DNA of 64,000 bases, taken from positions 62,001-126,000 of the forward strand of contig JACPNZ010000030.1 of the NCBI GenBank assembly GCA_016185245.1. The letters are read 5' to 3'. A model generated the notes under the pieces. The model saw nothing but the letters and a program-made list of their open reading frames with translations. It did not search any database and was not told the origin of the DNA. The DNA is from Hyphomicrobiales bacterium. GTDB lineage: Bacteria > Pseudomonadota > Alphaproteobacteria > Rhizobiales > Aestuariivirgaceae. Both the position numbers and the translations under genes were made by a program. Positions 6,440-25,134 of this stretch are shown piece by piece. Each line of letters begins with the position of its first letter. The stretch's first letter is position 1.

Positions 6440-6443
6440 TCCC

Positions 6444-8211: not shown

Positions 8212-8255
8212 CGCAGTCCGTCACGGTTTCGCGAAGATTAGCCTATTGACTATAG

Positions 8256-8271
8256 TTTAGCCAATGCTAAA
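8256..8271. promoter_or_regulatory. MntR-type operator between mntR and mntH
   Basis: TTTAGCCAATGCTAAA is a perfect 6-4-6 palindrome lying 9 bases before the mntH ATG. A plausible sigma-70 promoter for mntH overlaps it: TTGACT (8246-8251) and TAAATT (8268-8273) with a 16-base spacer. Repressor binding would cover the -10 region. Confidence 0.7.
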
Positions 8272-8280
8272 TTTACCCGC

Positions 8281-9627: not shown

Positions 9628-9676
9628 ATCCGGACACCATCTTGCAGACTCCGGCGGCCTACTTTATGGGCTCGCC

Positions 9677-11224: not shown

Positions 11225-11456
11225 GGAGAATCGGCGCTTTTCGGATACTTTCGGCGGTTCTAGCGTAACTTAGCGGGAGGCTCTCGGCGATGCCGTTGGA
11301 CGGTCGTGAAAACCGTAAAGCGCCGGTCATCGATTCTGCGGGCACTGGTCACCCGGCGTTGTTGCGAATATGGAAGTAGCGCCAACGCTGGAGAAAAGAC
11401 ATGGGGTGCCAGATTGCTGTCTCGCGAAAAACCTCAACTGAGCGGAATGTACTTCG

Positions 11457-13937
11457 ATGAAATCCAAGCGCCGAAACCTGAATTCCGCGGCCAAGCCGAA
11501 CAAGGAACCCAAGCTCTCGCGCAGCCATGCGCCCGCCGATCTTTCGCCACTGGATTGGCAGCGGGCTTTACGCCGCCAATTCGGCCGCGAGCAGGCCTTC
11601 GGGCTTGAAAATCTGAGCGGCGAACCGTTTTTCTCCGAGTTCCGGGTCAGCAATCCGGTTTCGAAATCCAGCTATCGCGTGGCGATTCGAGGCTTGGGGC
11701 CAGGTGGCAATTTCTGTTCATGCCCCGACTATGCCACCAGCGAGTTGGGCACCTGCAAGCACATCGAATTCACGCTTGCCCGGCTGGTGAAAAAACGCGG
11801 CGCCAAGACGGCGTTTGCGCGCGGCTACCATCCGGCGTTTTCCGAACTGTATTTGCGTAATGGAGGCCGTTGTCGAATACATTTTCACGCTGGTGCCGAT
11901 TGCCCGCCGGCGATGCGCGAGGCCGCCGCCGATTTGTTCGACGCCGAACACAACGGGATGCTGCCGGAGGAGCGCTTTGGCGAGCTGGAGCATTTCATGA
12001 CCATAGCGTCTAAGTCCGGCCATGAGTTGCGGGCCTATGACGATGCGCTCGATTTCGTCGCCGGAAGGCGCGATGCCGACCGGCGCGCCTCAAAACTCAA
12101 GCAGTTGTTCCCGCGCGGTGCCGCCGATCCCAAGCTGCTGGCACTTCTGAAGGTGCCGCTCTATCCCTATCAGGCCGAGGGGGCGCTGTTCGCGGTGCGG
12201 GCCGGCCGGGCGCTGATCGGCGACGATATGGGCCTGGGCAAGACCATTCAGGCAATTGCCGCGGTAGAAATACTGGCACGGCATTTCGGCGTCGCGAAAG
12301 TGCTGGTGATCTGCCCCACATCGCTCAAGTACCAGTGGCAGAGTGAGATCAAGCGGTTCTCCGGGCGGCAAGGTAAAAATGCGGCGCGTGTCATCAACGG
12401 TGGCCGGGCGCAGCGGCAGAGGGATTACGCCGTGGATGACTTCTACAAGATCACAAATTACGAGAAACTCAAACCCGATCTCGACCTGATCGCCGCCTGG
12501 ACGCCCGAACTGGTGATCGTCGACGAAGCGCAGCGGGTGAAAAACTGGAATACCATTGCGGCGCGCGCCTTGAAACGCATCGATAGCCCTTACGCGATCG
12601 TACTGACCGGCACGCCTCTGGAAAACAAGTTGGAGGAACTGATTTCCATTGTCCAGTTTGTCGATCAGCATCGGCTGGGGCCAACCTGGAAGCTGCTGCA
12701 CGAGCATCAGGTCAAGGACGAAGCCGGGCGCGTCACCGGCTATACCGGGCTGGAGAAGATCGGCCAGACGCTGGCGCCGGTCATGATCCGCCGGCGCAAG
12801 TCCGAGGTGCTGCGGCAACTGCCCAGCCGGACCGACCAGAACCTGCTGGTGCCGATGACCGAGATGCAAATGCTCTATCACCAGGAAAACGCCGACGTGG
12901 TGGCGAGAATCGTCCAGCGCTGGCGCAAGACGAGGTTCCTGTCGGACAAGGACCAGCGGCGGCTGACCTGCGCCCTGCAGAACATGCGCATGTCGTGCAA
13001 CAGCACCTATCTGCTCGATCGAGAAACCGACCATGGTGTCAAAGCTGACGAACTCGCCGCATTATTCGACGACCTGTTCGCTGAGCCTGAAACGAAGGCT
13101 GTGGTGTTTTCACAATGGACGCGGACCCACGACATCGTCATCCGGCGCCTCGAAGCGCGCGGGCTTGGCTACGTGAGCTTTCACGGCGGCGTGCCATCGG
13201 AAAAACGGCCGGCGCTGGTCGAACGGTTTCGTGACGACCCTACCTGCCGCGTGTTCCTGTCCACCGATGCGGGCAGCACTGGCCTCAATCTGCAGCATGC
13301 CTCGACCTTGGTGAACATGGACTTGCCATGGAACCCGGCGATTCTCGAACAGCGTATTGCGCGCATCCATCGCATGGGCCAGATAAGGTCGGTGCGGGTT
13401 ATCAATTTCGTGGCAAAGGGCACCATTGAGGAGGGCATGCTCTCGGTGCTGGCGTTCAAACGCTCCCTGTCGGCGGGAATTCTCGACGGCGGCAGCGGCG
13501 AGATTTCGCTCGGCGGAACGCGTCTCTCCCGTTTCATGAAGGACGTGGAAAACGTTACGGGACGTATGGGTGAGGGCGAGGCTGTGACACCGGCCGAGGA
13601 AGTGCGGAATATCGCCGCTGCCGATGACGCCATATCCATGGCGGAGGCCAACGAGGCTGCTGGCGAGATGGCAATCGTGCGGCTGGATACGCCCGTGTCG
13701 CCGCCACGCGAGGCAGCGTCCGATCCGTGGCAAGCCTTGCTGCAAGTGGGCACGCAGTTTATTGCCGCTCTGGCGGCTGCCAACGATCCCAAGGCTCCGG
13801 CGCATCCATGGATTGAGCGCGATCCAGCCACCGGCCTGCAAAACCTCAAGGTGCCGCTGCCGCCACCGGAAACGGCGGGACAACTTGCCAATGTGCTTTC
13901 GGCGCTCGCAGACAGCTTGCGGGGAAAGATTGCGTGA
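11457..13937 (+). CDS. SWIM-domain SNF2-family helicase-like ATPase
   Basis: This 826-residue protein combines an N-terminal SWIM zinc finger (C87, C89, C100, H102 in the FCSC...CKH pattern) with a Snf2/RapA-type superfamily 2 motor. Motor motifs are visible in order: DDMGLGKT (Walker A, near 257-263), VDEAQRVKNW (motif II, DEAQ at 356-359), LTGTPLENKLEEL (motif III), DAGSTGLNLQHA and the motif VI arginines in EQRIARIHRMGQ. Such proteins translocate on DNA and remodel protein-DNA complexes or help repair. An extra tail of about 150 residues follows the motor. It stands alone directly after the core guaA gene, with no partner methylase or nuclease. A role in DNA repair or defence is possible but not shown by context. 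Confidence 0.88.
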   Translation: MKSKRRNLNSAAKPNKEPKLSRSHAPADLSPLDWQRALRRQFGREQAFGLENLSGEPFFSEFRVSNPVSKSSYRVAIRGLGPGGNFCSCPDYATSELGTCKHIEFTLARLVKKRGAKTAFARGYHPAFSELYLRNGGRCRIHFHAGADCPPAMREAAADLFDAEHNGMLPEERFGELEHFMTIASKSGHELRAYDDALDFVAGRRDADRRASKLKQLFPRGAADPKLLALLKVPLYPYQAEGALFAVRAGRALIGDDMGLGKTIQAIAAVEILARHFGVAKVLVICPTSLKYQWQSEIKRFSGRQGKNAARVINGGRAQRQRDYAVDDFYKITNYEKLKPDLDLIAAWTPELVIVDEAQRVKNWNTIAARALKRIDSPYAIVLTGTPLENKLEELISIVQFVDQHRLGPTWKLLHEHQVKDEAGRVTGYTGLEKIGQTLAPVMIRRRKSEVLRQLPSRTDQNLLVPMTEMQMLYHQENADVVARIVQRWRKTRFLSDKDQRRLTCALQNMRMSCNSTYLLDRETDHGVKADELAALFDDLFAEPETKAVVFSQWTRTHDIVIRRLEARGLGYVSFHGGVPSEKRPALVERFRDDPTCRVFLSTDAGSTGLNLQHASTLVNMDLPWNPAILEQRIARIHRMGQIRSVRVINFVAKGTIEEGMLSVLAFKRSLSAGILDGGSGEISLGGTRLSRFMKDVENVTGRMGEGEAVTPAEEVRNIAAADDAISMAEANEAAGEMAIVRLDTPVSPPREAASDPWQALLQVGTQFIAALAAANDPKAPAHPWIERDPATGLQNLKVPLPPPETAGQLANVLSALADSLRGKIA

Positions 13938-14001
13938 TGGGCTGTGGCTGAACGCACGATCGCTTCAGTTGCTGGACCGGTGATGAAACCTCTACCGGCG
14001 C

Positions 14002-14022
14002 GGCCGACAGCGGCCTCGTTTT
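14002..14022 (+). terminator. Possible weak terminator after the SNF2 gene
   Basis: GGCCG (14002-14006) and CGGCC (14011-14015) form a 5-bp stem followed by TCGTTTT. It lies about 65 bases past the helicase stop and before the LacI operator. The stem is short, so this is tentative. Confidence 0.3.
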
Positions 14023-14066
14023 AAATCTGAAATTTCAGCTAACCCTATACCCGCTGCAGCCACGGA

Positions 14067-14095
14067 TTGACTTTTCATACAAAGTGGTTCACTAA
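14067..14095 (+). promoter_or_regulatory. Predicted promoter of the lacI-type operon
   Basis: TTGACT (14067-14072) and CACTAA (14090-14095), 17 bases apart, make a reasonable -35/-10 pair. The -10 lies inside the left arm of the palindromic operator, which would allow autorepression. Confidence 0.4.
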
Positions 14096-14116
14096 AGCGA
14101 TTTAGTAAACCGCTTT
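14081..14116. promoter_or_regulatory. LacI-family operator palindrome
   Basis: Arms AAAGTGGTTCACTAAA (14081-14096) and TTTAGTAAACCGCTTT (14101-14116) match as inverted repeats at 14 of 16 positions across a GCGA spacer. It is 11 bases upstream of the TTG start of the LacI-type gene and is the obvious binding site for that regulator. Confidence 0.7.
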
Positions 14117-14127
14117 ACGGAGCTTGC

Positions 14128-15219
14128 TTGCTCAGGAGGCCTACCATAGCCGATGTCGCCCGGCGGGCGGGTCTATCTCCCGCTGCGGTTTCGCGCTGGC
14201 TGAATGGCAGCATGCAGCTTCCGGCAGCGACAGGCGACAAGATCCGGGAAGCCGTCGAGGCGTTGGACTATCGCCCGCATGCGCAAGCCCGCCGCCTCTC
14301 GCGCGGCCGATCGGACACTATCGGCATCGTGGTACCCGACATTTCCAATCCGTTTTTTGCGGTGATCGCGGGCGAAGCCGAACGCGTCGCGACTGACGCG
14401 GGGCTTGACCTGGTGATCTGGTCTTCGCGCAATCTCATCACGCGGGAACTCGCCTGCTTCGACCGGCTGGCGTCCGGTTTCATCGACGGCCTCATTCTCA
14501 TCACCAATCATGAAGATGATGGCCGGCTGGCCGTTGCCATCAACAGGAATAAAGGCCGCGTGGTCATCGTCGATGAGGACGTGAGAGGGGTGCATGCCCC
14601 GCGCTTCTTTGTCGAGAACGAGGACGGCGGCTATCAGGCGACGAAACACCTGATTGAGCGCGGGCATCGCCATATTCTGCACATCGGCGGACCCAGTGGC
14701 GTCATGAGCGCCATCGAACGCGCGGCGGGATGGAAGCATGCACTCGCGGACGCGTCGATCACGCCGTCGGCCAATTGGCAGATATTCACGGAATATGAAG
14801 TAGGACTGGCAACCGAGGCCGCCGCCGCCATATTCAGGCTGTCGCCACGGCCCACTGCCGTGTTTGCAGGCAGCGATGCCATTGCGCTTGGTGTTCTGAC
14901 ACAGGCCCGTGCCCAGAATGTTGCGATTCCGGCAGACATGTCGCTTGCGGGATTCGACGGCATGCCGATCGTCGATCTGCTCGGGCCACCGTTGACGAGT
15001 ATCGCGCAGCCCATTGATGTGCTCGGCCGGCTTGGCGCCGAGCAGCTGATCAGGATGCTCAACGGAGCCGCGGATTCAGCGGCCCCAATCCGGCTTCCGG
15101 TGACGCTCGTTGTGCGTGGCTCCGTTAGCGCTCCAAGTCATAGACTCGGGTTTGCATCGCAGACCCCAATCCATCGAACCGGGGGAATGATCCCACAGTC
15201 GATTAACCAGGGAGAGTGA
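14128..15219 (+). CDS. LacI-family transcriptional regulator
   Basis: The 363-residue regulator has the LacI HTH and hinge (TIADVARRAGLSPAAVSRWLNG, then DYRPHAQARRLSRGRS) followed by a periplasmic-binding-protein-like sensor (IGIVVPDISNPFFAVIAGEAE onward). Translation apparently starts at a TTG (14128), since no ATG precedes the HTH and the frame matches the family from the third residue. The gene heads an operon: the binding-protein gene begins 1 base after its stop. The 36-bp palindrome just upstream suggests autoregulation together with all downstream genes. The effector is probably the imported sugar-like compound or a product of it. Confidence 0.93.
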   Translation: MLRRPTIADVARRAGLSPAAVSRWLNGSMQLPAATGDKIREAVEALDYRPHAQARRLSRGRSDTIGIVVPDISNPFFAVIAGEAERVATDAGLDLVIWSSRNLITRELACFDRLASGFIDGLILITNHEDDGRLAVAINRNKGRVVIVDEDVRGVHAPRFFVENEDGGYQATKHLIERGHRHILHIGGPSGVMSAIERAAGWKHALADASITPSANWQIFTEYEVGLATEAAAAIFRLSPRPTAVFAGSDAIALGVLTQARAQNVAIPADMSLAGFDGMPIVDLLGPPLTSIAQPIDVLGRLGAEQLIRMLNGAADSAAPIRLPVTLVVRGSVSAPSHRLGFASQTPIHRTGGMIPQSINQGE

Positions 15220-15220
15220 A

Positions 15221-16171
15221 ATGCAATACGTGACACGCAGAAGCTTGCTGTCGGCCGCCGCCGCTACCGCGCTCGCGCTCATGGGCGGACTGGCGTCAGC
15301 CCAGGAAAAGCCGACATTCGCGCTGATTCAAATCAATCAGCAGGCCTTGTTCTTTACGCAAATGAATGAAGGCGCACAGAAGGCCGCCGATGCGGCCGGC
15401 GCCAATCTGGTCATCTTCAACGCCAACAATGACCCGGCGGCGCAGAACAATGCGATCGAAACCTACATGCAGCAAAAGGTTAATGGACTGATTGTCGTCG
15501 CCATCGATACCAACGGCATCATGCCGGCTGTGAACGCCGCTGCTGCGGCCGGCATACCGGTCGTGGCGATCGACGCCGTGCTGCCTGCCGATGGCCCGCA
15601 GAAGGCGCAGATCGGCGTCGATAATGAGGGTGCGGGCCGAATGATCGGCGAGTACTTTCTGAAAGTGATGAAAGACAGCATGGGCGGCAAAGCGAAGCTC
15701 GGCATTGTCGGTGCGCTGAACTCCACCATTCAGAATATCCGGCAGAAGGGATTCGAGGATGTGGTTAAGGCCGATAGCAACGTGACGATAGCGGGCGTGG
15801 TCGATGGCCGCAACGTGCAGGACAACGCACTTGCCGCTGCCGAGAACCTGATCACGGCCAACCCCGATCTGACCGCCATCTATGCCACCGGCGAGCCGGC
15901 CTTGCTCGGCGCTGTGGCGGCCATCGAGAGTCAGGGCAAGCAGGGCCAGGTGAAGCTTGTCGGTTGGGATCTCACGGCCTCCGCCATCAAGGGCATCGAT
16001 GGCGGCTATGTTGTGGGCGTCATCCAGCAGGATCCATCCGGCATGGGGGCTGCGGGTGTTAACGCGTTGATGAAACTCTATGGCGGCGGAACGGTCGAGA
16101 AAAAAATCTCCGTGCCGGTTACTATCGTCACCAAGGACAACGTCGAGCCCTATCGCGCCGTCTTCAAATGA
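15221..16171 (+). CDS. Ribose-type ABC importer, periplasmic substrate-binding protein
   Basis: This is the substrate receptor of a carbohydrate-type ABC importer (RbsB/type I periplasmic fold). The N-terminus has a signal peptide (MQYVTRRSLLSAAAATALAL, cleavage near ASA-QEK). The mature part follows the family pattern: FFTQMNEGAQKAADAAGANLVI, then GLIVVAIDTNGIMPAVNAA and VVAIDAVLP. The C-terminal half contains NPDLTAIYATGEPALLGAVAA, where sugar binders usually have an N-D pair, so the ligand may not be plain ribose. The stop overlaps the ATPase start (ATGA). Confidence 0.92.
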   Translation: MQYVTRRSLLSAAAATALALMGGLASAQEKPTFALIQINQQALFFTQMNEGAQKAADAAGANLVIFNANNDPAAQNNAIETYMQQKVNGLIVVAIDTNGIMPAVNAAAAAGIPVVAIDAVLPADGPQKAQIGVDNEGAGRMIGEYFLKVMKDSMGGKAKLGIVGALNSTIQNIRQKGFEDVVKADSNVTIAGVVDGRNVQDNALAAAENLITANPDLTAIYATGEPALLGAVAAIESQGKQGQVKLVGWDLTASAIKGIDGGYVVGVIQQDPSGMGAAGVNALMKLYGGGTVEKKISVPVTIVTKDNVEPYRAVFK

Positions 16172-16989
16172 CAGGAAGCGGCCTGAGCGAGGCGGCGCAA
16201 GCCGCCTCGCATTCCAATCCGCACGGCTTGGCGCGCGTTACGATGCGCGGCATCCAGAAGCGTTTTGGTTCTATCGAAGCGCTGCGTGGCGTCGATCTCG
16301 ATCTGATGCCGGGAGAGTGTCTTGGTCTCGTCGGCGACAATGCGGCGGGCAAATCGACGCTGACGAAGGTATTGTCCGGCGCCTATGTGGCGGATGAAGG
16401 AACAATTACCATTGATGGCGCGCTAGCGTCTTTTCGCACCCCCGCCGAAGCGCGCCGGCACAGAATAGAAATGGTCTATCAGGATCTCTCCCTGTGCGAC
16501 ACGATCGATGTCGCCGGAAACCTGTTTCTGGGCCGCGAGAAATTCGTCGGCGCATCGCTGTTCGGCTTCCTCGCCAAACGCCGGATGGCGGAAGAAGCCC
16601 GCCGCATGCTCGATGGGCTCGAAATCAACATTCCCAACATGTCAGCGTTGGTGGCGCAGCTCTCGGGCGGCCAGCGCCAATCCATCGCCATTGCCAGAGC
16701 CGCGGCCTTCGATCCCCAGGTCTTGATCATGGACGAGCCCACCTCGGCGCTCGCCGTGGCGGAAGTTGAGGCGGTGCTGGCGCTCATCCAGCGCCTGAAA
16801 GCGCGTGGTGTCAGTGTTGTTCTCATCACCCACCGGCTTCAGGATCTGTTCCGCGTCTGCGACCGTATCGCTGTCATGTATGAAGGAACCAAAGTGGCGG
16901 AAAGGCAGATTGCCAAGACCGATCTCACGGAGATCGTAAAGCTCATCGTCGGCGAAGGTCATGTCTCGAAGCGTGGAACGGCCTCATGA
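16168..16989 (+). CDS. Ribose-type ABC importer, ATP-binding protein (single domain)
   Basis: The 273-residue ATPase has one ABC domain: Walker A GDNAAGKST, signature LSGGQRQS, Walker B VLIMDEPTSALA and switch ITHR. Ribose-type systems usually have a fused double ATPase of about 500 residues; this one resembles the single-domain FrcA-like subtype, so two copies should assemble with the permease. It overlaps both neighbours by 4 bases, which argues for strict co-translation. Confidence 0.92.
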   Translation: MTGSGLSEAAQAASHSNPHGLARVTMRGIQKRFGSIEALRGVDLDLMPGECLGLVGDNAAGKSTLTKVLSGAYVADEGTITIDGALASFRTPAEARRHRIEMVYQDLSLCDTIDVAGNLFLGREKFVGASLFGFLAKRRMAEEARRMLDGLEINIPNMSALVAQLSGGQRQSIAIARAAAFDPQVLIMDEPTSALAVAEVEAVLALIQRLKARGVSVVLITHRLQDLFRVCDRIAVMYEGTKVAERQIAKTDLTEIVKLIVGEGHVSKRGTAS

Positions 16990-17984
16990 GCGGATATAGC
17001 GGTAGGCCGAAGACTTCTCCACGCGCCGATTTCCTCGCCGCTCACGCGCAAGTGCTTTCCATCGCGGTGTTCTTCGTGCTGTGCCTTGCCGTGTTCTCGG
17101 TGGTGAGCGATGCGTTTTTTTCGACGGGCAATTTTCTCAATCTGCTGCGTCAATCCGCGCCGATGCTCATCGTGGCAGTGGCGATGACCTTCGTGATTAC
17201 CACGGGTGGGATCGATCTCTCCGTGGGTTCGACCGTTGCACTGGTGAATGCGCTGGCGGCGATACTTTTGCAGGTGGGAATTCCTTGGTCGGTGGTGATC
17301 CTGGCCTTGCTATGTGCCGGAGCCGCAACCGGCGCCGTGCAGGGCTGGTTCGTGGCTTTCGAAGGCATACCGGCCTTCATCGTCACACTGGCCGGCCTTT
17401 CGATCCTGCGCGGCGTCGCACTGCTCATGACGCAAGGCTTCTCCATCCCGATTGCGCCCGATAGCCTGTTTGTTCAGATCGGACGTGGCTGGCTCGCCGG
17501 CATTCCGTTCCCGGCGGTCATTGCCATCATATCGCTCCTTGCGGGATTCGCGGCCCTGAACCTGATGCAATTTGGCCGCCATGTCGTGGCGATCGGCGCC
17601 AACATGGAGGCGGCGCGCCGGGCTGGTGTGCCGGTGAAGTGGCGGCTCATCATGTGCTATGTGCTGAGCGGGATTGCCGCCGCCGTTGCCGGTATTGTTA
17701 TTGCCGCGCGCCTGGGGTCGGGATCTTCAAATGCGGCCGTGGGATTTGAGCTCGAGGTGATTGCAGCCGTGGTGCTGGGCGGCACGTCGCTCATGGGGGG
17801 CAAGGGTACGATCATCGGAACGGCGCTCGGCGCCTTGACGATCGCCGTCATCGGCAATGGCCTGATCCTCTCGCATGTGTCGCCGTTCTTTACACAAATC
17901 GTGACCGGCCTCATCATCCTCATCGCAATCTGGCTCAACACCAGAGTCTTCGCGAGGCTCGCCGCGCCGGTGCGCCGACCGTGA
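16986..17984 (+). CDS. Ribose-type ABC importer, permease
   Basis: The 332-residue integral membrane protein is of the RbsC/BPD-transp-2 family, with about 8-10 hydrophobic segments. The motifs TTGGIDLSVGSTVALVNALAA near the N-terminus and VVLGGTSLMGGKGTIIGT near the C-terminus are typical of ribose-type permeases. It presumably forms a homodimer. The following hydrolase gene begins 13 bases after its stop. Confidence 0.93.
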   Translation: MSGYSGRPKTSPRADFLAAHAQVLSIAVFFVLCLAVFSVVSDAFFSTGNFLNLLRQSAPMLIVAVAMTFVITTGGIDLSVGSTVALVNALAAILLQVGIPWSVVILALLCAGAATGAVQGWFVAFEGIPAFIVTLAGLSILRGVALLMTQGFSIPIAPDSLFVQIGRGWLAGIPFPAVIAIISLLAGFAALNLMQFGRHVVAIGANMEAARRAGVPVKWRLIMCYVLSGIAAAVAGIVIAARLGSGSSNAAVGFELEVIAAVVLGGTSLMGGKGTIIGTALGALTIAVIGNGLILSHVSPFFTQIVTGLIILIAIWLNTRVFARLAAPVRRP

Positions 17985-17997
17985 AGGGCGGGATCGC

Positions 17998-19080
17998 ATG
18001 ATGGAACTGGCGGAAGCGCATATCGGCTCGGGAAAAGTCATGACGGTGCGGGGGGCTGTTCCCGCAGCCAACCTGGGCATCACGCTGCCGCATGAACATA
18101 TCCTCAATGACTGCCGGTGCTGGTGGCACAAACCTGTCGAGGCGGACCGGCACTCTCTCGCGGATGGCCCTGTTCATATGGGGATCATCGGTGAACTCCG
18201 CATGGACCCCTTCGTCAATCGCGACAATTGCACGCTCGATGACGAGGCCCTCGCCGTCAGTGAGCTGCTGGCGTTCAAGACCGCGGGAGGGGCGACGGTT
18301 GTCGACCCCACCTGCCGGGGAATCGGCCGCAACCCGGAAGCACTCGTGCGCATCTCGCTGGCTACAGGCCTCCACATTGTCATGGGCTCCGGTTACTACC
18401 TTCAGACCTCGCACCCGCCGGAACTTGCGCGACTTTCCATCGATAACATCGCCGATGAAATCGTTACCGAGGCACTGCGTGGCGTCGGGGATACAGGCGT
18501 GAAGATCGGCCTCATCGGCGAAATTGGCGTATCGGGCGAGTTCACCAGGGATGAAGAAAAATCGCTGCGTGGCGCGGCGCGCGCCCAGGACCGCACCCAA
18601 CTGCCATTGATGGTGCATCTCCCGGCCTGGTACCGCCACGCCCATCGAGTGCTCGACATCGTTGCCGAGGAGGGCGGCAATATCCGCCATACGGTCCTCT
18701 GCCACATGAATCCCTCCGGCAGTGATCCCGGATATCAAATGTCGCTTGCCGAGCGTGGGGCCTTCATCGAGTATGACATGCTGGGCATGGATTATTGGTA
18801 TGCCGACCAGCAGGTGCAGTGCCCTTCCGATGAGGAAAACGCCCGCGCCATCGCCGGACTCGTCGCCGCCGGTCACACCAGCCGCCTGCTCCTCTCCCAG
18901 GACGTGTTCCTCAAGATGATGCTCTGCCAGTATGGCGGTTTCGGTTATGCCTATGTCCTCAAACACTTTGTTCCACGCCTGAGACGGCATGGCGTGCCCG
19001 AGGCCGCGATATCGGCAATGCTGATCGACAATCCCCGTAGCGTCTTTCACGCGGCCTCGTTTTCACGGAGAATATCATGA
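17998..19080 (+). CDS. Phosphotriesterase-family metal-dependent hydrolase
   Basis: This 360-residue TIM-barrel amidohydrolase belongs to the phosphotriesterase (PTE) family. All metal-site positions can be placed: H32 and H34 in LPHEH, bridging E175 in LIGEIG, H207 in LMVHLP, H236 in VLCHMN and D302 in LLLSQDV. The bridging residue is a glutamate, as in the E. coli phosphotriesterase homology protein, where classical PTE has a carbamylated lysine. Family members include lactonases, esterases and organophosphate hydrolases. In this operon it probably opens or cleaves the imported compound or a metabolite of it. The stop overlaps the next start (ATGA). Confidence 0.9.
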   Translation: MMELAEAHIGSGKVMTVRGAVPAANLGITLPHEHILNDCRCWWHKPVEADRHSLADGPVHMGIIGELRMDPFVNRDNCTLDDEALAVSELLAFKTAGGATVVDPTCRGIGRNPEALVRISLATGLHIVMGSGYYLQTSHPPELARLSIDNIADEIVTEALRGVGDTGVKIGLIGEIGVSGEFTRDEEKSLRGAARAQDRTQLPLMVHLPAWYRHAHRVLDIVAEEGGNIRHTVLCHMNPSGSDPGYQMSLAERGAFIEYDMLGMDYWYADQQVQCPSDEENARAIAGLVAAGHTSRLLLSQDVFLKMMLCQYGGFGYAYVLKHFVPRLRRHGVPEAAISAMLIDNPRSVFHAASFSRRIS

Positions 19081-19847
19081 AGAAGAAAAACGTTTTGCTT
19101 GTCGGCGAAAGCTGGGCCAGTTCGGCAAATCACAGCAAGGGCTGGGACACGTTTTCGAGCGTCACGTTTCATCTCGGCGCCGCGCCGCTGGTCGATGCGC
19201 TCGTGGGCAGCCCTTTCGAACTCACCTACATGAAGGCCCATGAGGCGGCTTCCGAATTTCCTCTCTCACTCGAGGGGCTGAAAGGTTTCGATGCCATACT
19301 CCTTTCCGATATCGGTTCGAATACACTGCTGCTTCATCCCGATGTGTGGCTTCACGGAAAAACCGTTCCCAACCGCTTGTCGCTGATCAAGGATTATGCC
19401 GCGGCTGGCGGCGGGCTGATGATGATCGGTGGCTACTTTTCGTTCCAGGGCATCGACGGCAAGGCCCGCTGGCACAAGACGGCGGTGGAAGCGGCGCTGC
19501 CTGTCACCTGTCTTCCCTATGACGACCGGCTGGAAACGCCCGAAGGCATTGTGGCGGAGGTGGTCTTGCCATCGCATCCGATCGTCGCGGGGTTGGACCA
19601 GCCTTGGCCGGCCCTGCTTGGGGTCAACGAGGTGAAACTGAAGGCGGGCGCCGATGTGCAGGTAATCGCGCGGTTGCCCGAGGCCCAGGGCGGCCATCCG
19701 CTACTGGTCGCCGGAAGCCATGGCAAAGGGCGCACCCTGGTGTGGACCTCCGACATTGGCCCCCATTGGTTGCCCAACACGTTTGTCTCCTGGCCCGGTT
19801 ACAAGAAGCTCTGGACCCAGGCGCTGGCCTGGCTGACGCGATCTTAA
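19077..19847 (+). CDS. GATase1-like (glutamine amidotransferase fold, DUF1355-type) protein
   Basis: The 256-residue protein resembles the class I glutamine-amidotransferase-like flavodoxin fold annotated as 'glutamine amidotransferase' in many operons with ribose-type ABC importers. Recognisable pieces are NVLLVGESW, YDAILLSDIG-like (FDAILLSDIGSN), a GGGLMMIGGYFSFQG strand-turn and a C-terminal GKGRTLVWTSDIGPHW. No nucleophilic cysteine is in the usual position (MIGGYFSFQG), so amidotransferase activity is doubtful. The downstream kinase starts at the next base. Confidence 0.75.
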   Translation: MKKKNVLLVGESWASSANHSKGWDTFSSVTFHLGAAPLVDALVGSPFELTYMKAHEAASEFPLSLEGLKGFDAILLSDIGSNTLLLHPDVWLHGKTVPNRLSLIKDYAAAGGGLMMIGGYFSFQGIDGKARWHKTAVEAALPVTCLPYDDRLETPEGIVAEVVLPSHPIVAGLDQPWPALLGVNEVKLKAGADVQVIARLPEAQGGHPLLVAGSHGKGRTLVWTSDIGPHWLPNTFVSWPGYKKLWTQALAWLTRS

Positions 19848-20741
19848 GTGGTGATGCTGCTCGTTCTTGGGAATGCCTGCAGGGATATTACCTTCCGTGT
19901 TGCGGCGCTTCCCGCCCCCGGGGAAACGCTCAACGCACTTGATACAGTCAGCGGCTTGGGCGGCAAGGGGCTCAATCAAGCCATTGCTGCGGCCCGGACC
20001 GGAGCGGTTGTCCGGTTTGTCGCCGCTGTTGGCAACGATGCAGTTGCGGACACCATTCGCGCCGCCTTGCGGGCTGAAAGCATGACGGATGCGGGCCTTA
20101 TTGCAAAGCCCGGCGAAACCGACCTTTCGGCCATCATTGTCGCAAGCAGCGGGGAGAACATGATTGTGACGAATGCGGTCCACGCCGCAAGCCTCGGCAT
20201 CGAAGACATCGCAGAACACATGTCGTTCGCAGGCGGCGACACGTTGCTGCTGCAAGGTAACCTTCCCGCCGAAACCAGCATCCATGCAGCAAAGCGTGCA
20301 AGAGCTTCAGGCGCCAGGGTGGTTTTCAATCCCGCTCCCTACCACGATTGGTGCAAGATAATTGCGCATGACATCGATGTCTTAATTCTCAATGCTGTCG
20401 AAGCCGAACGCTGGTCGGGCGCCAGCGGTCTGGAACGGTCTATTGAACAATTGAGTGCACCCGTCGGAATAGTGACTTGCGGACCCATGGGCTGCCTGGT
20501 GAAAAAAGGCCGTGAGTCCGTGCAGGAATGCCTCGCGCCCCGGGTGAAAGCGGAAGATGCCACAGGTGCCGGAGATACCTTCTGTGGTGTATTCACGGCG
20601 GAGTGGATGCGTACCGGAGAGGCCGCCGCCGCGGTCCGCCTGGCGCTCGCGGCGGCGAGCGATTCAGTCACGCGGCCGGGCGCGCTGGCATCGGTTCCGA
20701 GCCGGGAGGCGCTGGCGCACATGCGGCGTGAACTCAGATGA
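19848..20741 (+). CDS. PfkB-family (ribokinase-like) carbohydrate kinase
   Basis: The 297-residue kinase is of the ribokinase/PfkB family: N-terminal GGKGLNQAIAAAR motif and C-terminal DATGAGDTFCG with catalytic D243. Family members phosphorylate sugars or nucleosides. It starts with GTG immediately after the preceding stop, with no spacer. In context it should phosphorylate the sugar part released from the imported compound, most simply ribose or a ribosyl derivative. The substrate cannot be fixed from motifs. Confidence 0.88.
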   Translation: MVMLLVLGNACRDITFRVAALPAPGETLNALDTVSGLGGKGLNQAIAAARTGAVVRFVAAVGNDAVADTIRAALRAESMTDAGLIAKPGETDLSAIIVASSGENMIVTNAVHAASLGIEDIAEHMSFAGGDTLLLQGNLPAETSIHAAKRARASGARVVFNPAPYHDWCKIIAHDIDVLILNAVEAERWSGASGLERSIEQLSAPVGIVTCGPMGCLVKKGRESVQECLAPRVKAEDATGAGDTFCGVFTAEWMRTGEAAAAVRLALAAASDSVTRPGALASVPSREALAHMRRELR

Positions 20742-21955
20742 TGGTGCAAGACCTTCTCACTGCGGCGGCAGTGCGTGGTGCGGCGGCCCGCATGCTCGCC
20801 GATGCGCGGGCAGGGGGGCTGCAACACTGGACGCTCGATGAACAGGCGCTGCCGCAGATCGCGACACTCGTGGCCCGCATTACGCAGCGGAATTATCCCG
20901 ATCTGAAGATTCCGTTTCATGCGCGCTGGCGGCATTTCACCGCGGGCGGGGTGGACCGCTGGCTGGCACTCGCAGCGGCACTGCCGGAGGCCGATCCCGT
21001 CGAACGCGCGCGCCGGGCGTTTGATCTCGTGATCATGTCAGTTCTTGTCGATGCCGGGTCCGGCGGCGCCTGGAGTTACTTCGACGCCATCACGAAAGAG
21101 CGTTATCATTCCTCCGAAGGCCTGGCCCAGGCGTCGCTGGACCTTTATCGGGATGGAATTCGGAAGACGCGGGGCCGCGCGCTTGCAGCACAATGGCTTG
21201 CAGCGCTTGACATCGGCGAATTCGAGCGGGCCTTTCAAGTCCGCGACGACAATCCCTTGAGCGGAACGATGGGCCGGGTTTCGCTCTTGAACCGCCTTGG
21301 CCGGGTGTGTCTTGCGCGCCCGGACGTCTTCGCCACGTCTGGTATCCCGCGCCCCGGCGGTCTCGTCGATACCATCCTGAAGCACGCCGTGAACGGGCAG
21401 ATTGCGGCGGACGCCACTCTCGAACTTGTGCTCGACAGCCTGGGGGCGATCTGGCCGTCACCCGTCACGCTTGAAGGCATACCGCTCGGCGATGCCTGGA
21501 TTTACCCTCCCTGGGCCTCGGACGATGGCCTTACCGCGAGCGCCATCGTGCCATTTCACAAGCTCTCGCAATGGCTCACCTACTCGCTCATCGAGCCGCT
21601 CGAGGACGCCGGCATCACCGTGACCGGCATCGGCCAACTCACGGGTCTCGCCGAATACCGCAATGGCGGACTGTTCGTTGATGGCGGCGCCTTGCAGTTG
21701 AAGCGGCCGGCTGACGCTGCGCTGGTTCATGCGCCCGATTCAGCCCTTGTGATCGAATGGCGAGCGATGACTGTTGCCCTGCTCGATCTCCTCCATCCGC
21801 TTGTCGCGGAAGAACTCGGCATTGCCTTCGCCGGCTTTCCCCTGGCCCGCATGCTGGAAGGCGGCACATGGGCCGCGGGCCGGGATATGGCCAGACGATC
21901 CCGCACGGACGGCAGGCCGCCGATTACCGTCGTGAATGACGGAACAGTATTCTGA
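20738..21955 (+). CDS. DUF1688 (URC4-like) protein
   Basis: The 405-residue protein resembles the DUF1688 family, whose fungal member URC4 is required for growth on uracil through the URC pyrimidine-degradation pathway. Supporting segments are AVRGAARMLADARAG, FDLVIMSVLVDAGSGGAWSYFD, YHSSEGLAQASLDLY, GIPRPGGLVD and QWLTYSLIEPLEDAGI. The biochemical activity of the family is not established to my knowledge. The usual partners, a GTP-cyclohydrolase-like URC1 and a uracil phosphoribosyltransferase, are absent here. It closes the LacI-type operon, overlapping the kinase stop by 4 bases. Confidence 0.8.
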   Translation: MMVQDLLTAAAVRGAAARMLADARAGGLQHWTLDEQALPQIATLVARITQRNYPDLKIPFHARWRHFTAGGVDRWLALAAALPEADPVERARRAFDLVIMSVLVDAGSGGAWSYFDAITKERYHSSEGLAQASLDLYRDGIRKTRGRALAAQWLAALDIGEFERAFQVRDDNPLSGTMGRVSLLNRLGRVCLARPDVFATSGIPRPGGLVDTILKHAVNGQIAADATLELVLDSLGAIWPSPVTLEGIPLGDAWIYPPWASDDGLTASAIVPFHKLSQWLTYSLIEPLEDAGITVTGIGQLTGLAEYRNGGLFVDGGALQLKRPADAALVHAPDSALVIEWRAMTVALLDLLHPLVAEELGIAFAGFPLARMLEGGTWAAGRDMARRSRTDGRPPITVVNDGTVF

Positions 21956-22029
21956 TGGCTTGCCTTTGCCTCTCCACCACGCCTTCTGCCCTTGCAAAAT
22001 CAAAACTTTGCCGCCATACTTTTGATGTC

Positions 22030-22389
22030 ATGCCGCAACCCTTGATCCGGCGCATGCTTGTCATGTTGCTCGCAGTCTTCTTGACTGGGGGGTTCGGCTT
22101 GTCCGCCGTTCAAGCAAGCAGCATGAGCATCACGATGATGGACATGGCCCCCGGCATGGGCAATTCCGCCAACGGGAAGTGCCTTGATTGCGAAAGCCCC
22201 GGCGGTTCCAAGGGAATGGCTGCCTGCGTGGCGCCGGCCTGTGCTGGAAACTTGGCGGCGCGTCTGCCTTCCCTGGAAAATTCCCGTCTTGGCTCCATGG
22301 CGGTCCATCATCCGCGTCCGGACCGGGCGCTTCTCGGCCGTGGCTCGGAGCCCGACCCCTACCCTCCACGAACCATCGACATCGCCTGA
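22030..22389 (+). CDS. Small exported Met/Cys-containing protein of the copper cluster
   Basis: The protein has 119 residues from the ATG at 22030. It has a signal peptide (LIRRMLVMLLAVFLTGGFGLSAVQA), then a metal-binding-looking stretch with several Met (SMSITMMDMAPGMG) and Cys pairs (CLDCES, CVAPACAG). The C-terminus ends in a PDPYPPRTIDIA pattern that I associate with small proteins near copper-resistance genes. The frame is open further upstream, but the earlier start adds no signal-like sequence. No known domain is assigned. It is the first gene of the copper/thiol cluster and begins 74 bases after the DUF1688 stop. Confidence 0.6.
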   Translation: MPQPLIRRMLVMLLAVFLTGGFGLSAVQASSMSITMMDMAPGMGNSANGKCLDCESPGGSKGMAACVAPACAGNLAARLPSLENSRLGSMAVHHPRPDRALLGRGSEPDPYPPRTIDIA

Positions 22390-22516
22390 CGCACCTTCTG
22401 CCGCCGTGAGCGGCGAGGAGCGCGGTCGAACGCGCATGTACGCAAACTCCCTCGTGGAGACCCGCCATAATGGCGGCGCGGCATGCCATCCAAGGTGGTT
22501 GTCGAAGGATCGGAAA

Positions 22517-23956
22517 GTGATTTCAAGTTTCAGCAATTCCATATCCCGCCGGACGTTTGTGCTAGGCGGCGCAGGCATCGTTTTGGCGGCGATTGCAGGT
22601 TCTCGGGTTTCGCGGGCCGGAGGCCCCGCCGAATATCGGCTGCGCGCTGCGCCGGGTGCCGCCCGTCTCACATCCGGCGACGGCCCGCAGACCAATGTAC
22701 TAGCATACAACGATTCGATGCCGGGACCGGTATTGCGCCTCAAGCAAGGCGATCCGGTACGTTTCATCGTCGCGAACGGGCTCGACCAGGATACGACGGT
22801 TCATTGGCATGGCATCCGGTTGCCCAACGCCATGGACGGTGTGCCGGGCCTCACCCAGCCGCCGATCAAACCCGGCGAGAGCTTCGTCTATGAATTCACG
22901 CCGCCCGACGCGGGGACATTCTGGTATCACCCGCACGCCAACAGTCTGCAGCAGATTGGGCGCGGCCTCGCCGGTCTTCTGATCGTCGAGGAACGCGAGA
23001 CCGTCGCCGTTGATCGCGACATCCTGTGGATGTTGCAGGACTGGCGGCTGACGGGCAGCGGCGAGATCGCCTCCGGCTTCGGCAGCATGATGGACGCATC
23101 CATGTCCGGCCGGGTCGGCAATCTTGTCACCATCAACGGTTCCAAGCCGCGCGATCTATCGGTTCGCGCCGGAGAGCGCGTCCGGCTGCGTCTGGCCAAC
23201 GCGGCGCTCGCCCGCATCCTGGCACTCCGATTCGAAGGACATCGCCCCATTGTCATCGCCGTCGACGGCCAGCCCTGCGAGCCACACGCACCGGAAAATG
23301 GCCGCGTTGTAATCGGTCCCGCCATGCGCATCGACGTCGTGCTCGACATGCAGGGCGACCCCGGCAAGCGCTACGCCGTTATCGACGATTTCTACGACGG
23401 ACTTTCCTACGAGTTGACCAATCTTGCCTACGAGAAAGCGCCACTCCGCGCGCGCGCGCTTGATACCGCGTTTGTGCTGCCAGCCAATCCGCTCCCTGAA
23501 CCGGACCTCGCCAAAGCGGTGAAGCAGGAGATCGTCCTGCAGGGCGGCATGATGGGCGGTGGCAAGCTGGCAGGCGTCGGCGGCTTGAATGGCATGGCCA
23601 TGCCCGGCATGGGCGGCGGACCCGTCTGGGCGATCAACGGCATGTCGATGACCGGCGACGGTGGGATGGACATGCCGCCCTTATTCACCCTGCGGCGCGG
23701 GGTGAGCTGCCTGCTTGCCATGCGCAATCAGACCGCATGGTGGCACACCATGCATATTCACGGCTTCAGCATGCTGGTGCTCACCCGCAATGGGGCACCC
23801 GTGCCCTATCGGCAATGGCAGGACAGCGTGCTGATGGCGCCGAAGGATGCCGTCGAATGCGCCTTCGTTGCCGATAACCCCGGCAACTGGATGCTCCATT
23901 GCCATGTCACCGACCACCAGATGACGGGCCTCATGACCGTGTTCCGTGTAGCTTGA
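22517..23956 (+). CDS. Multicopper oxidase (CopA/laccase type), Tat-exported
   Basis: Multicopper oxidases oxidise Cu(I), metals or phenols with O2 in the periplasm. The 479-residue product starts at a GTG (22517) preceded by AAGGA at good spacing. It carries a twin-arginine signal (ISRRTFVLGG). All four copper motifs are present: HWHG (H96, H98), WYHPH (H138, H140), HTMHIHG and HCHVTDHQMTGL. The axial position after the last motif is Leu, not Met, as in high-potential laccases. A Met/Gly-rich loop (GGMMGGG..MAMPGMGGG) is typical of copper-handling members such as CueO or CopA. Confidence 0.93.
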   Translation: MISSFSNSISRRTFVLGGAGIVLAAIAGSRVSRAGGPAEYRLRAAPGAARLTSGDGPQTNVLAYNDSMPGPVLRLKQGDPVRFIVANGLDQDTTVHWHGIRLPNAMDGVPGLTQPPIKPGESFVYEFTPPDAGTFWYHPHANSLQQIGRGLAGLLIVEERETVAVDRDILWMLQDWRLTGSGEIASGFGSMMDASMSGRVGNLVTINGSKPRDLSVRAGERVRLRLANAALARILALRFEGHRPIVIAVDGQPCEPHAPENGRVVIGPAMRIDVVLDMQGDPGKRYAVIDDFYDGLSYELTNLAYEKAPLRARALDTAFVLPANPLPEPDLAKAVKQEIVLQGGMMGGGKLAGVGGLNGMAMPGMGGGPVWAINGMSMTGDGGMDMPPLFTLRRGVSCLLAMRNQTAWWHTMHIHGFSMLVLTRNGAPVPYRQWQDSVLMAPKDAVECAFVADNPGNWMLHCHVTDHQMTGLMTVFRVA

Positions 23957-23983
23957 CTCCCGTTCAACTAAAGGAGAAGTGAA

Positions 23984-24448
23984 ATGAAAACTATCTACCG
24001 TCTCGCAACAACAGCCGTGCTGATCGCCCTGCCGCATCATGCCTTCGCGGCGGTGATCAAAGGTTCAATGTACAAGAACCCAACGTGCACCTGCTGCGAG
24101 ACCTACGCCGCCTATCTCGAGAAGAATGGCCTGAAGATCAAAATCATACCGACGAACGATCTCGATCAGATCGCGGCAACCGAGGGTGTGCCCGACCAGC
24201 TGCGCAGCTGCCACACCATCAAATTCGGCAATCTCGTCATCGAAGGTTTCGTGCCATTCAAGCAGGTCAAGAAGATGTTGACCATGCCGTTCAATGCCAA
24301 GGGCCTTTCAATGCCAGGCATGCCCATGGACATTGCGGAAATGGGTTTCGACTCGATGCCCGGCATGGAAAAGGCGACCTACACCATCTACGCCTTCACC
24401 ACGGACGGGAAGGATCCGACGATCTTCGGCACCTATTCTTCGAATTAG
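23984..24448 (+). CDS. DUF411 metal-binding protein
   Basis: The 154-residue exported protein (signal MKTIYRLATTAVLIALPHHAFA) belongs to DUF411, small copper-cluster proteins. The CTCC motif (C35, C37, C38) after YKNPT and a further cysteine in LRSCHTIKFG are the likely metal ligands. A Met-rich C-terminal half (GLSMPGMPMDIAEMGFDSMPGM) adds soft-metal sites. An AAAGGAG-type ribosome site lies just upstream, 27 bases after the oxidase stop, so the two are co-transcribed. It may deliver copper to the oxidase. Confidence 0.88.
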   Translation: MKTIYRLATTAVLIALPHHAFAAVIKGSMYKNPTCTCCETYAAYLEKNGLKIKIIPTNDLDQIAATEGVPDQLRSCHTIKFGNLVIEGFVPFKQVKKMLTMPFNAKGLSMPGMPMDIAEMGFDSMPGMEKATYTIYAFTTDGKDPTIFGTYSSN

Positions 24449-24528
24449 GGGGCTCACAAAGACAGACCTGGCGCCGCGGCAACACATTCGCGCCGGGCGA
24501 TCACCACTCCTCGTGACGAGGTTCTAAG

Positions 24529-25134
24529 ATGGCTGAACAACTATCGGCTAATCCATCCACGCCCCCGGACGTTCGCGTCGCTCGCCGGCGGCTTCTGCTT
24601 GCCTTGCCCGCAACGGGCTTTGTCGCCCTGGCGGGTTTATTCGCCGTGGGCCTCGGCCGCGACCCAAGCCTGCTGCCATCCACGCTCATCGGCAAGAAAG
24701 TGCCGGAGTTCGAGCTCCCGCCGGTCAAGGGCCGGACGTTGGGGCTGTCGAGCAAGAACCTCGTGGGCGAGGTGTCGCTGGTCAATGTCTTCGCCTCCTG
24801 GTGCGTCGCCTGCCGCCAAGAGCATCCGGTATTCATGGAACTGACGCGCAAGAAGCTCGTGCCTCTGCACGGCCTCAACTACAAGGATGCGCCCGACGAT
24901 GCCGCCCAATGGCTCAACACCATGGGCGATCCCTACACCCGCATCGGCGCCGACCTGAATGGCCGCGTCGCCATCGACTGGGGTGTTTATGGCGTCCCCG
25001 AAACCTTCGTGGTCGGGGCCGATGGCACCATCGCTTACAAGCATATCGGCGCCGTCACCGAACAGGTACTCGGTCAAACGATCATGCCGCTCGTCGAAAG
25101 CCTGCGCAAATCGGCGAAAGGAGCGGGGGTATGA
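24529..25134 (+). CDS. CcmG/DsbE-like thioredoxin-fold protein
   Basis: This is a membrane-anchored periplasmic thiol reductant of the CcmG/DsbE type, 201 residues. One transmembrane anchor (LLLALPATGFVALAGLFAVGL) is followed by a thioredoxin domain with WCVAC (C92, C95) and the cis-Pro loop GVPETFVV. In cytochrome c maturation CcmG reduces apocytochrome, but no ccm genes are nearby. Here it is more likely to keep cysteines of SCO, DUF411 or another copper protein reduced, fed by CcdA. It overlaps the next gene by 4 bases. Confidence 0.88.
   Translation: MAEQLSANPSTPPDVRVARRRLLLALPATGFVALAGLFAVGLGRDPSLLPSTLIGKKVPEFELPPVKGRTLGLSSKNLVGEVSLVNVFASWCVACRQEHPVFMELTRKKLVPLHGLNYKDAPDDAAQWLNTMGDPYTRIGADLNGRVAIDWGVYGVPETFVVGADGTIAYKHIGAVTEQVLGQTIMPLVESLRKSAKGAGV

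What the first reader, a model, noticed from the sequence alone, without database searches (positions are those of the whole stretch)
14128..21955. LacI-controlled operon linking ribose-type import, PTE-like hydrolase, kinase and DUF1688/URC4
Eight genes are packed with 4-bp overlaps or near-zero gaps: LacI regulator, binding protein, single-domain ATPase, permease, PTE-like hydrolase with a complete metal site, GATase1-like protein, PfkB kinase and DUF1688. DUF1688 (URC4) is tied to uracil breakdown through ribosyl intermediates in fungi, but its usual partners URC1 and UPRT are absent. The set looks like a route that imports a ribosyl- or nucleoside-like compound, opens it, phosphorylates the sugar and processes the rest. 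I know of no described pathway with this composition.
Basis: partly seen in the sequence, partly recalled or inferred. Interest (0 to 1): 0.7.

Follow-up and report, generated by a model that had tools for sequence, protein, structure and literature searches.

The report
Operon for an unknown ribose-linked compound
Eight tightly packed bacterial genes probably import a ribose-linked molecule, add a phosphate to its ribose and cut the ribose off with a protein of the uracil-breakdown family URC4, whose predicted fold matches the enzyme that frees queuine, which gives URC4 a testable chemistry.

Summary
The eight genes are real and in the stated order, but the operon is not unique. Among 397 genomes of the order, 35 (own included) carry this PTE type: 26 have BtpA in the operon (10 of them TenA too), 9 do not. 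One of the nine, G627 (same family), has the same eight genes ending in DUF1688. Among these 35, both genomes with DUF1688 in the operon lack URC1; all nine with a canonical DUF1688 elsewhere have it.

The window DUF1688 branches inside URC4. Its AlphaFold model (pLDDT 93.8) significantly matches only Qng1/DUF2419, the queuosine-5'-monophosphate glycosidase (11 of 11 PDB hits at E<=0.001). Qng1's key Lys and Asp map to K275 and E306, invariant in 124 of 124 canonical homologues.

Best reading: a ribosylated compound is imported, PTE and the GATase1-like protein trim its aglycone, PfkB phosphorylates the ribose, DUF1688 cuts the N-glycosidic bond. The substrate is unknown; a ureide such as ribosylurea is the leading guess. 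Two LacI operators lie just upstream.

The parts
14093..14104 (+). LacI-type operator 1, TAAAGCGATTTA
   Evidence: Exact match, (2 matches in the window with up to 1 mismatch, 0.27 expected); same motif close before the LacI genes of the G627, G535 and G657 operons
14106..14117 (+). LacI-type operator 2, TAAACCGCTTTA, in tandem, ending 10 nt before the LacI start
   Evidence: the own genome has only one other pair, before another LacI gene
14128..15219 (+). LacI-family regulator (TTG start), first gene of the operon, presumably autoregulated
   Evidence: Pfam LacI + Peripla_BP_3; 65-68% identical in G627, G535, G657
15221..16171 (+). Ribose-type periplasmic binding protein (SBP)
   Evidence: Peripla_BP_4; PDB 5hsg E 2e-118, (its Klebsiella origin is recalled); ribose-site comparison
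16168..16989 (+). Single-domain sugar ABC ATPase
   Evidence: ABC_tran; matches only the N-terminal half of RbsA/YtfR-type models
16986..17984 (+). Ribose-type ABC permease
   Evidence: BPD_transp_2; best NCBIfam ribose permease PRK09512, below its cut-off
17998..19080 (+). PTE-family metal hydrolase, close to PDB 3k2g
   Evidence: PTE PF02126 2e-61; 3k2g E 1e-150 with HxH, the GEIG glutamate, two further His and an Asp aligned, (its identity as R. sphaeroides Rsp3690 and the ligand list are recalled)
19077..19847 (+). GATase1-like protein PF07090 without the elbow cysteine
   Evidence: PDB 2gk3 and 3soz; elbow G-G-Y 43/43
19848..20741 (+). PfkB kinase, ribokinase-like (GTG start)
   Evidence: PfkB; best NCBIfam ribokinase TIGR02152 1e-54, below cut-off
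20738..21955 (+). DUF1688/URC4, predicted 5'-phosphoribosyl N-glycosidase of the Qng1 fold
   Evidence: PF07958; AlphaFold model; Foldseek; tree
21560..21562 (+). Codon of K275, counterpart of Qng1 K199
   Evidence: invariant in 124/124 canonical rows
21653..21655 (+). Codon of E306, counterpart of Qng1 D231
   Evidence: invariant in 124/124 canonical rows

Best explanation
A LacI-controlled catabolic operon for an N-ribosylated compound. (1) The CUT2-type importer takes up a molecule with a free ribose and a bulky or open substituent (inferred from the SBP pocket). (2) The PTE-family hydrolase and the GATase1-like protein open or trim the non-sugar part (family chemistry; order and substrate inferred). 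(3) The PfkB kinase phosphorylates the 5'-OH of the ribose (inferred; the kinase of a related Enterobacterial cluster is a proven ribose kinase). (4) DUF1688, a URC4 recruited from the uracil pathway, hydrolyses the N-glycosidic bond of the 5'-phosphoribosyl compound with the Qng1-type Lys/carboxylate pair K275/E306, giving ribose-5-phosphate and a small nitrogen compound, most likely urea or a ureide (fold, residues and descent shown by computation; reaction inferred). In most sister operons BtpA (in 10 of 26 with TenA) may fill this step. LacI represses through two tandem operators upstream of its own gene (inferred). Confidence 0.6 for the architecture and the glycosidase step; about 0.35 that the aglycone is urea or a ureide.
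For: Fold: all 11 PDB matches at E<=0.001 are Qng1/DUF2419 (E 7e-10 to 2e-7, TM 0.61-0.65 by query, 0.73-0.80 by target); the next is E 0.53, with NTHL1 and EndoIII, Lys/Asp glycosylases (recalled), at ranks 12 and 14. Residues: the Qng1 K199/D231 segments fall on K275/E306 (hhalign alignment; two-block register 25.9 against 6.9 for the next, 0 of 300 shuffles reach it); K275, E306, Y307, R308 are 124/124 in canonical rows, and kept in window and G627 (two divergent copies left out). Known role: URC4 degrades ribosylurea to urea in L. kluyveri, as stated in PMC7530994 (passages). Descent: window and G627 DUF1688 are sisters (SH-aLRT 94), inside alphaproteobacterial URC4. Context: of 35 genomes, 2 of 2 with DUF1688 in the operon lack URC1; 9 of 9 with a canonical one elsewhere have URC1. 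Exchange: canonical DUF1688 in 7 of 9 genomes with BtpA-less operons against 4 of 26 with BtpA operons, Fisher p 0.0013; counting the two divergent copies, 6 of 26, p 0.006. PfkB and DUF1688 overlap by 4 nt. Kinase: RikA/STM3547 is a ribose kinase next to GATase1-like and PTE genes (PMC13432705). SBP: F15, F16, D89, R141, D215, Q235 kept; N13A, R90A, F164G, N190G, F214W (contact list recalled).
Against: No substrate, activity or ligand is known for any of the eight proteins. Sequence alone does not prove the Qng1 link (hhalign P 0.043, probability 1.2%); the blocks were chosen after seeing the motif, and the best shuffle reached 24.0. The Qng1 Asp is a Glu here. The own genome does have BtpA elsewhere (C57, E 1e-70, and a match on C38 split over two frames), as have BtpA-less G440 and G432, so DUF1688 does not simply stand in for a missing BtpA; BtpA was sought genome-wide in only 15 of the 35 genomes. 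At genus level the exchange is p 0.057, with relatedness uncorrected; G432 and G583 have no DUF1688 and no BtpA in the operon, and G466, G480, G658, G727 have BtpA operons and DUF1688. The window DUF1688 has a long branch (0.83), SH-aLRT 94 is under the 95 mark, and R125S, A108S, H256Y and a change at S400 are shared with G627, so its substrate may have shifted. M20 deacylase and oligopeptide-importer variants of the operon point to an acylated or peptide-like substrate rather than a plain ureide.
Confidence: 0.6

Rival explanations
1. The operon scavenges free ribosylurea itself: import, 5'-phosphorylation, cleavage to urea and ribose-5-phosphate, with PTE and GATase1-like protein acting on ester or amide conjugates of it.
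For: Yeast URC4 degrades ribosylurea as stated in PMC7530994; URC1, which would make it inside the cell, has no match in both genomes with DUF1688 in the operon; catalytic residues unchanged.
Against: No environmental source at scale is known to me; PTE and GATase1-like are then hard to explain; 33 of 34 foreign operons mapped lack DUF1688.
Confidence: 0.2
2. The substrate is an acylated N-ribosyl amino acid or peptide-like conjugate; PTE deacylates it as mammalian PTER does N-acetyltaurine (recalled), and DUF1688 or BtpA splits the ribose-nitrogen bond.
For: Pantoea variant has an ArgE/DapE-like M20 deacylase; Roseomonas variant has an oligopeptide-type importer; the second PDB match of the PTE is 9efa, 'phosphotriesterase-related protein'.
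Against: Neither extra is in the window operon; the window importer is ribose-type.
Confidence: 0.2
3. Ordinary ribose or pentose uptake operon; DUF1688 and PTE are passengers or side functions.
For: Ribose-type importer and ribokinase-like PfkB; RikA is a ribose kinase in vitro and in vivo.
Against: SBP ribose site changed at 5 of 11 recalled contacts; ribose-system models score below cut-off; the GATase1-like gene accompanies PTE in 29 of 34 foreign operons, which were chosen by PTE; eight-gene order conserved in G627.
Confidence: 0.1
4. Salvage of a modified tRNA nucleoside (queuosine-like) rather than carbon or nitrogen catabolism.
For: DUF1688 has the Qng1 fold.
Against: DUF1688 nests in URC4 of uracil operons; Qng1 itself was not in the tree; none of the eight operon genes is a TGT or other Q gene by Pfam.
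Confidence: 0.05

Closest known systems
URC pathway (URC1-URC4-UPRT), Lachancea kluyveri and bacteria such as Azospirillum (L035) and Gordonia (L036)
   Same: DUF1688 is a member of the URC4 family and nests within it
   Different: No URC1 match in the genome, no UPRT in the window; kinase, importer, PTE and GATase1-like instead
Qng1/DUF2419, queuosine-5'-monophosphate N-glycosidase
   Same: Fold over most of the protein and the Lys + carboxylate positions
   Different: 15-18% identity, no Pfam cross-match, Glu for the Asp; substrate almost certainly different (inference)
RikA/STM3547-STM3550 cluster of Enterobacterales (PMC13432705)
   Same: PfkB ribose kinase, PF07090-type protein and PTE-family protein together; substrate unknown
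   Different: DMT transporter instead of ABC importer; no DUF1688 and no BtpA among its four genes; PTE about 37% identical in such a cluster (H107)
Rhizobium LacI-SBP-ATPase-permease-PTE-GATase1-BtpA-TenA-ribokinase operon (L002; same in Phyllobacterium L004)
   Same: Same first six genes, at 64-74% identity for SBP to GATase1 in L002, and a PfkB kinase
   Different: BtpA + TenA stand where the window has DUF1688; kinase only 33-37% and LacI 42-43% identical
PDB 3k2g (R. sphaeroides Rsp3690, recalled)
   Same: Close relative of the window PTE (E 1e-150)
   Different: Its reported carboxylesterase activity (recalled; one passing mention of metal-stimulated esterase activity seen in PMC5341072) has no known physiological substrate

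Membership tests
URC4/DUF1688 | Pfam PF07958 over full length | tested here: met
   419 bits against cut-off 25, profile 2-420 of 420
URC4/DUF1688 | Places within URC4 of URC1-linked operons | tested here: met
   In a three-row set with URC1-linked L024, SH-aLRT 96; long branch
URC uracil pathway | URC1 (PF12471) in the genome | tested here: not met
   0 matches in G000 and G627
URC uracil pathway | UPRT next to URC4 | tested here: not met
   No UPRT in the window; rest of genome not searched
URC4/DUF1688 | Ribosylurea (or its 5'-phosphate) hydrolysis | not testable with these tools
   Needs assay
Qng1/DUF2419 | Fold | tested here: met
   11 of 11 hits at E<=0.001
Qng1/DUF2419 | Catalytic Asp (D231) | tested here: not met
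   Glu at the aligned position, invariant
Qng1/DUF2419 | Pfam PF10343 match | tested here: not met
   Only DUF1688 reported up to E 10 (filters drop most matches above about 0.1)
PTE/PLL amidohydrolases | PF02126 and metal ligands | tested here: met
   ligand positions identical to 3k2g (ligand list recalled)
Class I glutamine amidotransferase | Nucleophile cysteine at the elbow | tested here: not met
   G-G-Y at the presumed elbow in 43 of 43; C145 kept in 39 of 43
RbsB ribose-binding protein | Ribose contact residues | tested here: not met
   6 of 11 recalled positions kept; RbsB model 115 bits against cut-off 337
Ribokinase RbsK | NCBIfam equivalog cut-off | tested here: not met
   186 bits against 299.65; closest model nonetheless
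RikA cluster | PfkB + PF07090 + PTE together | tested here: met
RikA cluster | DMT transporter | tested here: not met
   ABC importer in the window

The most novel reading that the evidence does not exclude
URC4/DUF1688 and Qng1 are one superfamily of 5'-phosphoribosyl N-glycosidases. The operon degrades an undescribed natural N-ribosyl metabolite, in which DUF1688 and BtpA are interchangeable ribose-releasing enzymes; this would give the BtpA/SgcQ family a catalytic role and explain the unknown substrate of the RikA cluster.
Probability: 0.27. Interest if true: 0.78.

Novelty: new variant of a known kind. Interest (0 to 1): 0.6.

Why it matters
URC4's reaction has been an open step in the URC pyrimidine-degradation pathway; PMC7530994 still calls the steps leading to ribosylurea uncharacterised. 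A confident fold match to a glycosidase turns the question into a direct assay. The operon separates URC4 from URC1 and puts it next to a kinase, which suggests that URC4 works on 5'-phosphorylated ribosides in general. Relatives of the PTE lie on 89 Rhizobium plasmid records of 166 records hit, and loci of this operon type were also inspected in Phyllobacterium, Roseivivax, Pantoea and Klebsiella, so finding the substrate would name a nutrient that many plant-associated bacteria may use.

Tried and rejected
Viral contigs: no relatives of DUF1688 or BtpA. Single genome-contig scan with DUF1688 (at least 580 relatives, best 80 kept): none of the 80 kept loci, several of them short, carries PTE or GATase1-like. 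Six of these 80 lack adjacent URC1 (L040, L045, L049, L062, L065, L095); a seventh such locus, L015, came, but that stretch is only 4 kb. Three were looked at briefly. Class sample: DUF1688 in 38 of 385 genomes and a strong GATase1-like match only in the window genome (3 weak ones, E 9e-12 to 3e-5). That sample lists only four other genomes of the order, so the order samples were used instead.

PF10343 (Qng1) rang in 0 of 249 phylum genomes and in no control, so it says nothing about presence or absence. DUF1688 has no PDB relative by sequence up to E 10, nor BtpA up to E 0.1. hhalign of the DUF1688 profile with two 50-residue Qng1 segments is weak by itself; I rely on the fold. The VIA-align second look was unavailable. 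No sigma-70-like promoter was found in 13900-14200 or 21900-22550 and no terminator-like site in the latter. ORF lists around eight operons were cluttered by shadow frames and not used. The third-position GC of the multicopper-oxidase-like gene was computed out of frame and is dropped. The second AlphaFold job was not used. Considered and dropped as main readings: plain ribose uptake, queuosine salvage, chance adjacency.

Literature searches: DUF1688 (4 papers), URC4+uracil (3), BtpA/SgcQ (218, 30 listed, none on this family's catalysis by title), Qng1/queuosine/DUF2419 (34, 20 listed), ribosylurea (4), Rsp3690/STM35xx/KPN_01730 (2), DUF1688/URC4/Urg3 with queuosine terms (182, 40 listed, none of them with both sets), BtpA/SgcQ/TenA/PTE/ribokinase combination (0 with four of six terms). 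I found no mention of a URC4-Qng1 link, but this rests only: 142 of the 182 papers were not listed, subscription papers and preprints are not held, and Pfam clan membership was not checked.
Full report
What is there. Eight genes run on the + strand from 14128 to 21955: LacI, binding protein, single-domain ATPase, permease, PTE-family hydrolase, GATase1-like protein, PfkB kinase and DUF1688. Gaps are 1, -4, -4, 13, -4, 0 and -4 nt. Two exact LacI-type operators, TAAAGCGATTTA and TAAACCGCTTTA, lie at 14093-14104 and 14106-14117, directly before the LacI start. The window holds no others with up to one mismatch; 0.27 matches are expected, and 2 of 100 shuffles reach two. The same element precedes the operons of G627, G535 and G657. 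Genome-wide the exact pattern occurs at four places in the own genome (control, the pattern read backwards, 0), two in G627 (control 3), one in G535 (control 1) and three in G657 (control 0), so the position before the operon, not the count, is the evidence. The own genome's other pair lies before another LacI gene.

Not chance, not unique. A PTE search of 397 genomes of the order found 35 at E<=1e-80, own included. None of the 12 other listed genomes of the window's genus and one (G627) of the seven listed others of its family had it; four of the former and two of the latter were also tested for DUF1688, with none. GC at third codon positions is 0.65-0.75 in the operon against 0.80-0.85 in guaA, the RsmB-type gene and Nramp, but 0.74 in the neighbouring helicase gene. 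Together these suggest a mobile or patchily lost operon. I fetched stretches of 5.5 to 20 kb around all 34 foreign hits and mapped them with tblastn. Twenty-six hold BtpA, 10 of these with TenA as in Rhizobium leguminosarum; 29 of 34 hold the GATase1-like gene. Nine genomes, own included, have no BtpA in the operon. G627 has exactly the window's eight genes, with DUF1688 at 52% identity.

DUF1688 against BtpA. Canonical DUF1688 occurs in 7 of 9 BtpA-less genomes (window, G627, G535, G657, G440, G481, G738) and in 4 of 26 with BtpA operons (G466, G480, G658, G727); two more of the 26 (G666, G617) have a divergent form without the catalytic lysine. Fisher p is 0.0013 by genome, 0.006 if the divergent copies count, and 0.057 by genus, without correction for relatedness. 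Against the pattern: G432 and G583 have importer, PTE and GATase1-like genes but neither BtpA in the operon nor DUF1688; the own genome has BtpA elsewhere, on C57 and in two frames on C38, as have G440 and G432, while G535 and G481 have none; the 20 genomes were not searched for BtpA outside the operon. URC1 was found in 9 of 35 genomes: exactly the nine with a canonical DUF1688 outside the operon, and not in the window genome or G627. In those nine, DUF1688 lies next to URC1, and next to UPRT in six. In a quick tree of 128 sequences the window and G627 copies are sisters (SH-aLRT 94, no bootstrap) and join URC1-linked L024 (96), inside alphaproteobacterial URC4, with long branches of 0.83 and 0.55. 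One recruitment is the simplest reading, but long branches make the placement less sure.

What DUF1688 is. An AlphaFold model from 52 sequences (window and 51 of the 80 loci) has mean pLDDT 93.8 and pTM 0.92. Against 350,542 PDB chains the only significant matches are 11 chains of Qng1/DUF2419 (E 7e-10 to 2e-7, 15-18% identity); the next match is at E 0.53, with NTHL1 and EndoIII at ranks 12 and 14. Qng1 frees queuine from queuosine or its monophosphate (PMC11130926, passages; the mechanism paper is not held). The mutants K199C and D231N named in the PDB titles place the key residues in FYKRAQ and FADYK. On DUF1688 these fall on FHKLSQ (K275) and LAEYR (E306): hhalign chooses this register (P 0.043, probability 1.2%, so weak alone), and my two-block scan gives it 25.9 against 6.9 for the next, with 0 of 300 shuffles reaching it (best shuffle 24.0; blocks chosen after seeing the motif). 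K275, E306, Y307 and R308 are invariant in 124 of 124 canonical homologues (some of them identical rows; the two divergent copies and L039, which has a stop codon, left out) and kept in the window and G627. Since URC4 degrades ribosylurea to urea in L. kluyveri, as stated in PMC7530994 (passages), a Qng1-like N-glycosidase acting on a 5'-phosphoribosyl urea or amide is the natural inference.

The other parts. The binding protein is closest to PDB 5hsg (E 2e-118; Klebsiella origin recalled, no ligand known to me) and keeps F15, F16, D89, R141, D215 and Q235 of E. coli RbsB but not N13, R90, F164, N190 and F214 (contact list recalled). The sugar grip stays while four of the five changes are to Ala or Gly, as for a substituted riboside. 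The PTE protein is close to 3k2g (E 1e-150; R. sphaeroides Rsp3690 recalled) with the metal-ligand positions kept. The GATase1-like protein is unlikely to be a normal amidotransferase, since the presumed elbow reads G-G-Y in 43 of 43, though C145 is kept in 39 of 43. The kinase is ribokinase-like but below the equivalog cut-off. In Salmonella the kinase of a related four-gene cluster with GATase1-like and PTE genes has ribose kinase activity, and its authors suggest that this may be off-target for an unknown substrate (PMC13432705, abstract and passages).

Mechanism. Shown by computation: gene order, conservation, operators, fold and active-site match, URC4 descent, no URC1 match. Inferred: import of a riboside, trimming by PTE and GATase1-like protein, 5'-phosphorylation, glycosidic cleavage to ribose-5-phosphate and a small nitrogen product. 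The logic mirrors the URC route: there UPRT makes the nucleotide and URC1 acts before URC4; here a kinase makes the 5'-phosphate and PTE/GATase1-like may prepare the aglycone. The substrate is open: ribosylurea or another ureide first, an acylated N-ribosyl amine second, because variants carry an ArgE/DapE-like M20 deacylase (Pantoea) or an oligopeptide-type importer (Roseomonas).

Verdict. The core was known or annotated; what appears new is URC4 moved into it, and the assignment of URC4 to the Qng1 fold with a conserved catalytic pair. Interest 0.6.

Noticed in passing
L200 (1504-2685), L201 and L208/L209 in genomes G666 and G617: A divergent DUF1688 (30-32% identity to the window) next to UPRT and PfkB, in genomes without a URC1 match; it lacks the catalytic Lys and the EYR motif, so it may be a different enzyme.
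   Followed up: partly
L040, L045, L049, L062, L065, L095: DUF1688 without URC1 in the fetched stretch, followed by UPRT in L040, L045, L049 and L062; L095 sits among frames that look to me like CoA-transferase and decarboxylase genes.
   Followed up: partly
L003 (Roseomonas plasmid), 7955-16886: LacI-GATase1-like-BtpA-PfkB operon with an oligopeptide-type importer and no PTE annotated beside it: a variant that may hint at the substrate.
   Followed up: no
L202 (Klebsiella), 1318-10035: The same operon type with an IS1 element between BtpA and the binding-protein gene; neither PfkB nor GATase1-like is in the (incomplete) gene table of the stretch, where the sister Pantoea locus L203 has both.
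   Followed up: no
window 14002-14015: A short GC-rich hairpin with a T-rich tail between the helicase gene and the operators, a possible terminator of the upstream gene.
   Followed up: no
window 21955-25673: Directly downstream: a multicopper-oxidase-like frame (my reading) and a redoxin/AhpC-type gene, apparently unrelated to the operon; the frame starting at 21955 overlaps the DUF1688 stop by one base.
   Followed up: partly
G000 C11:33141-33174 (L219, L221): A second tandem pair of TAAACCGATTTA operators in the own genome, between another LacI gene and a gene that looks to me like a hydroxyacid dehydrogenase.
   Followed up: partly
G000 C38:62367-63127: A BtpA match in the own genome that is split over two reading frames, besides a full-length one on C57.
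   Followed up: no
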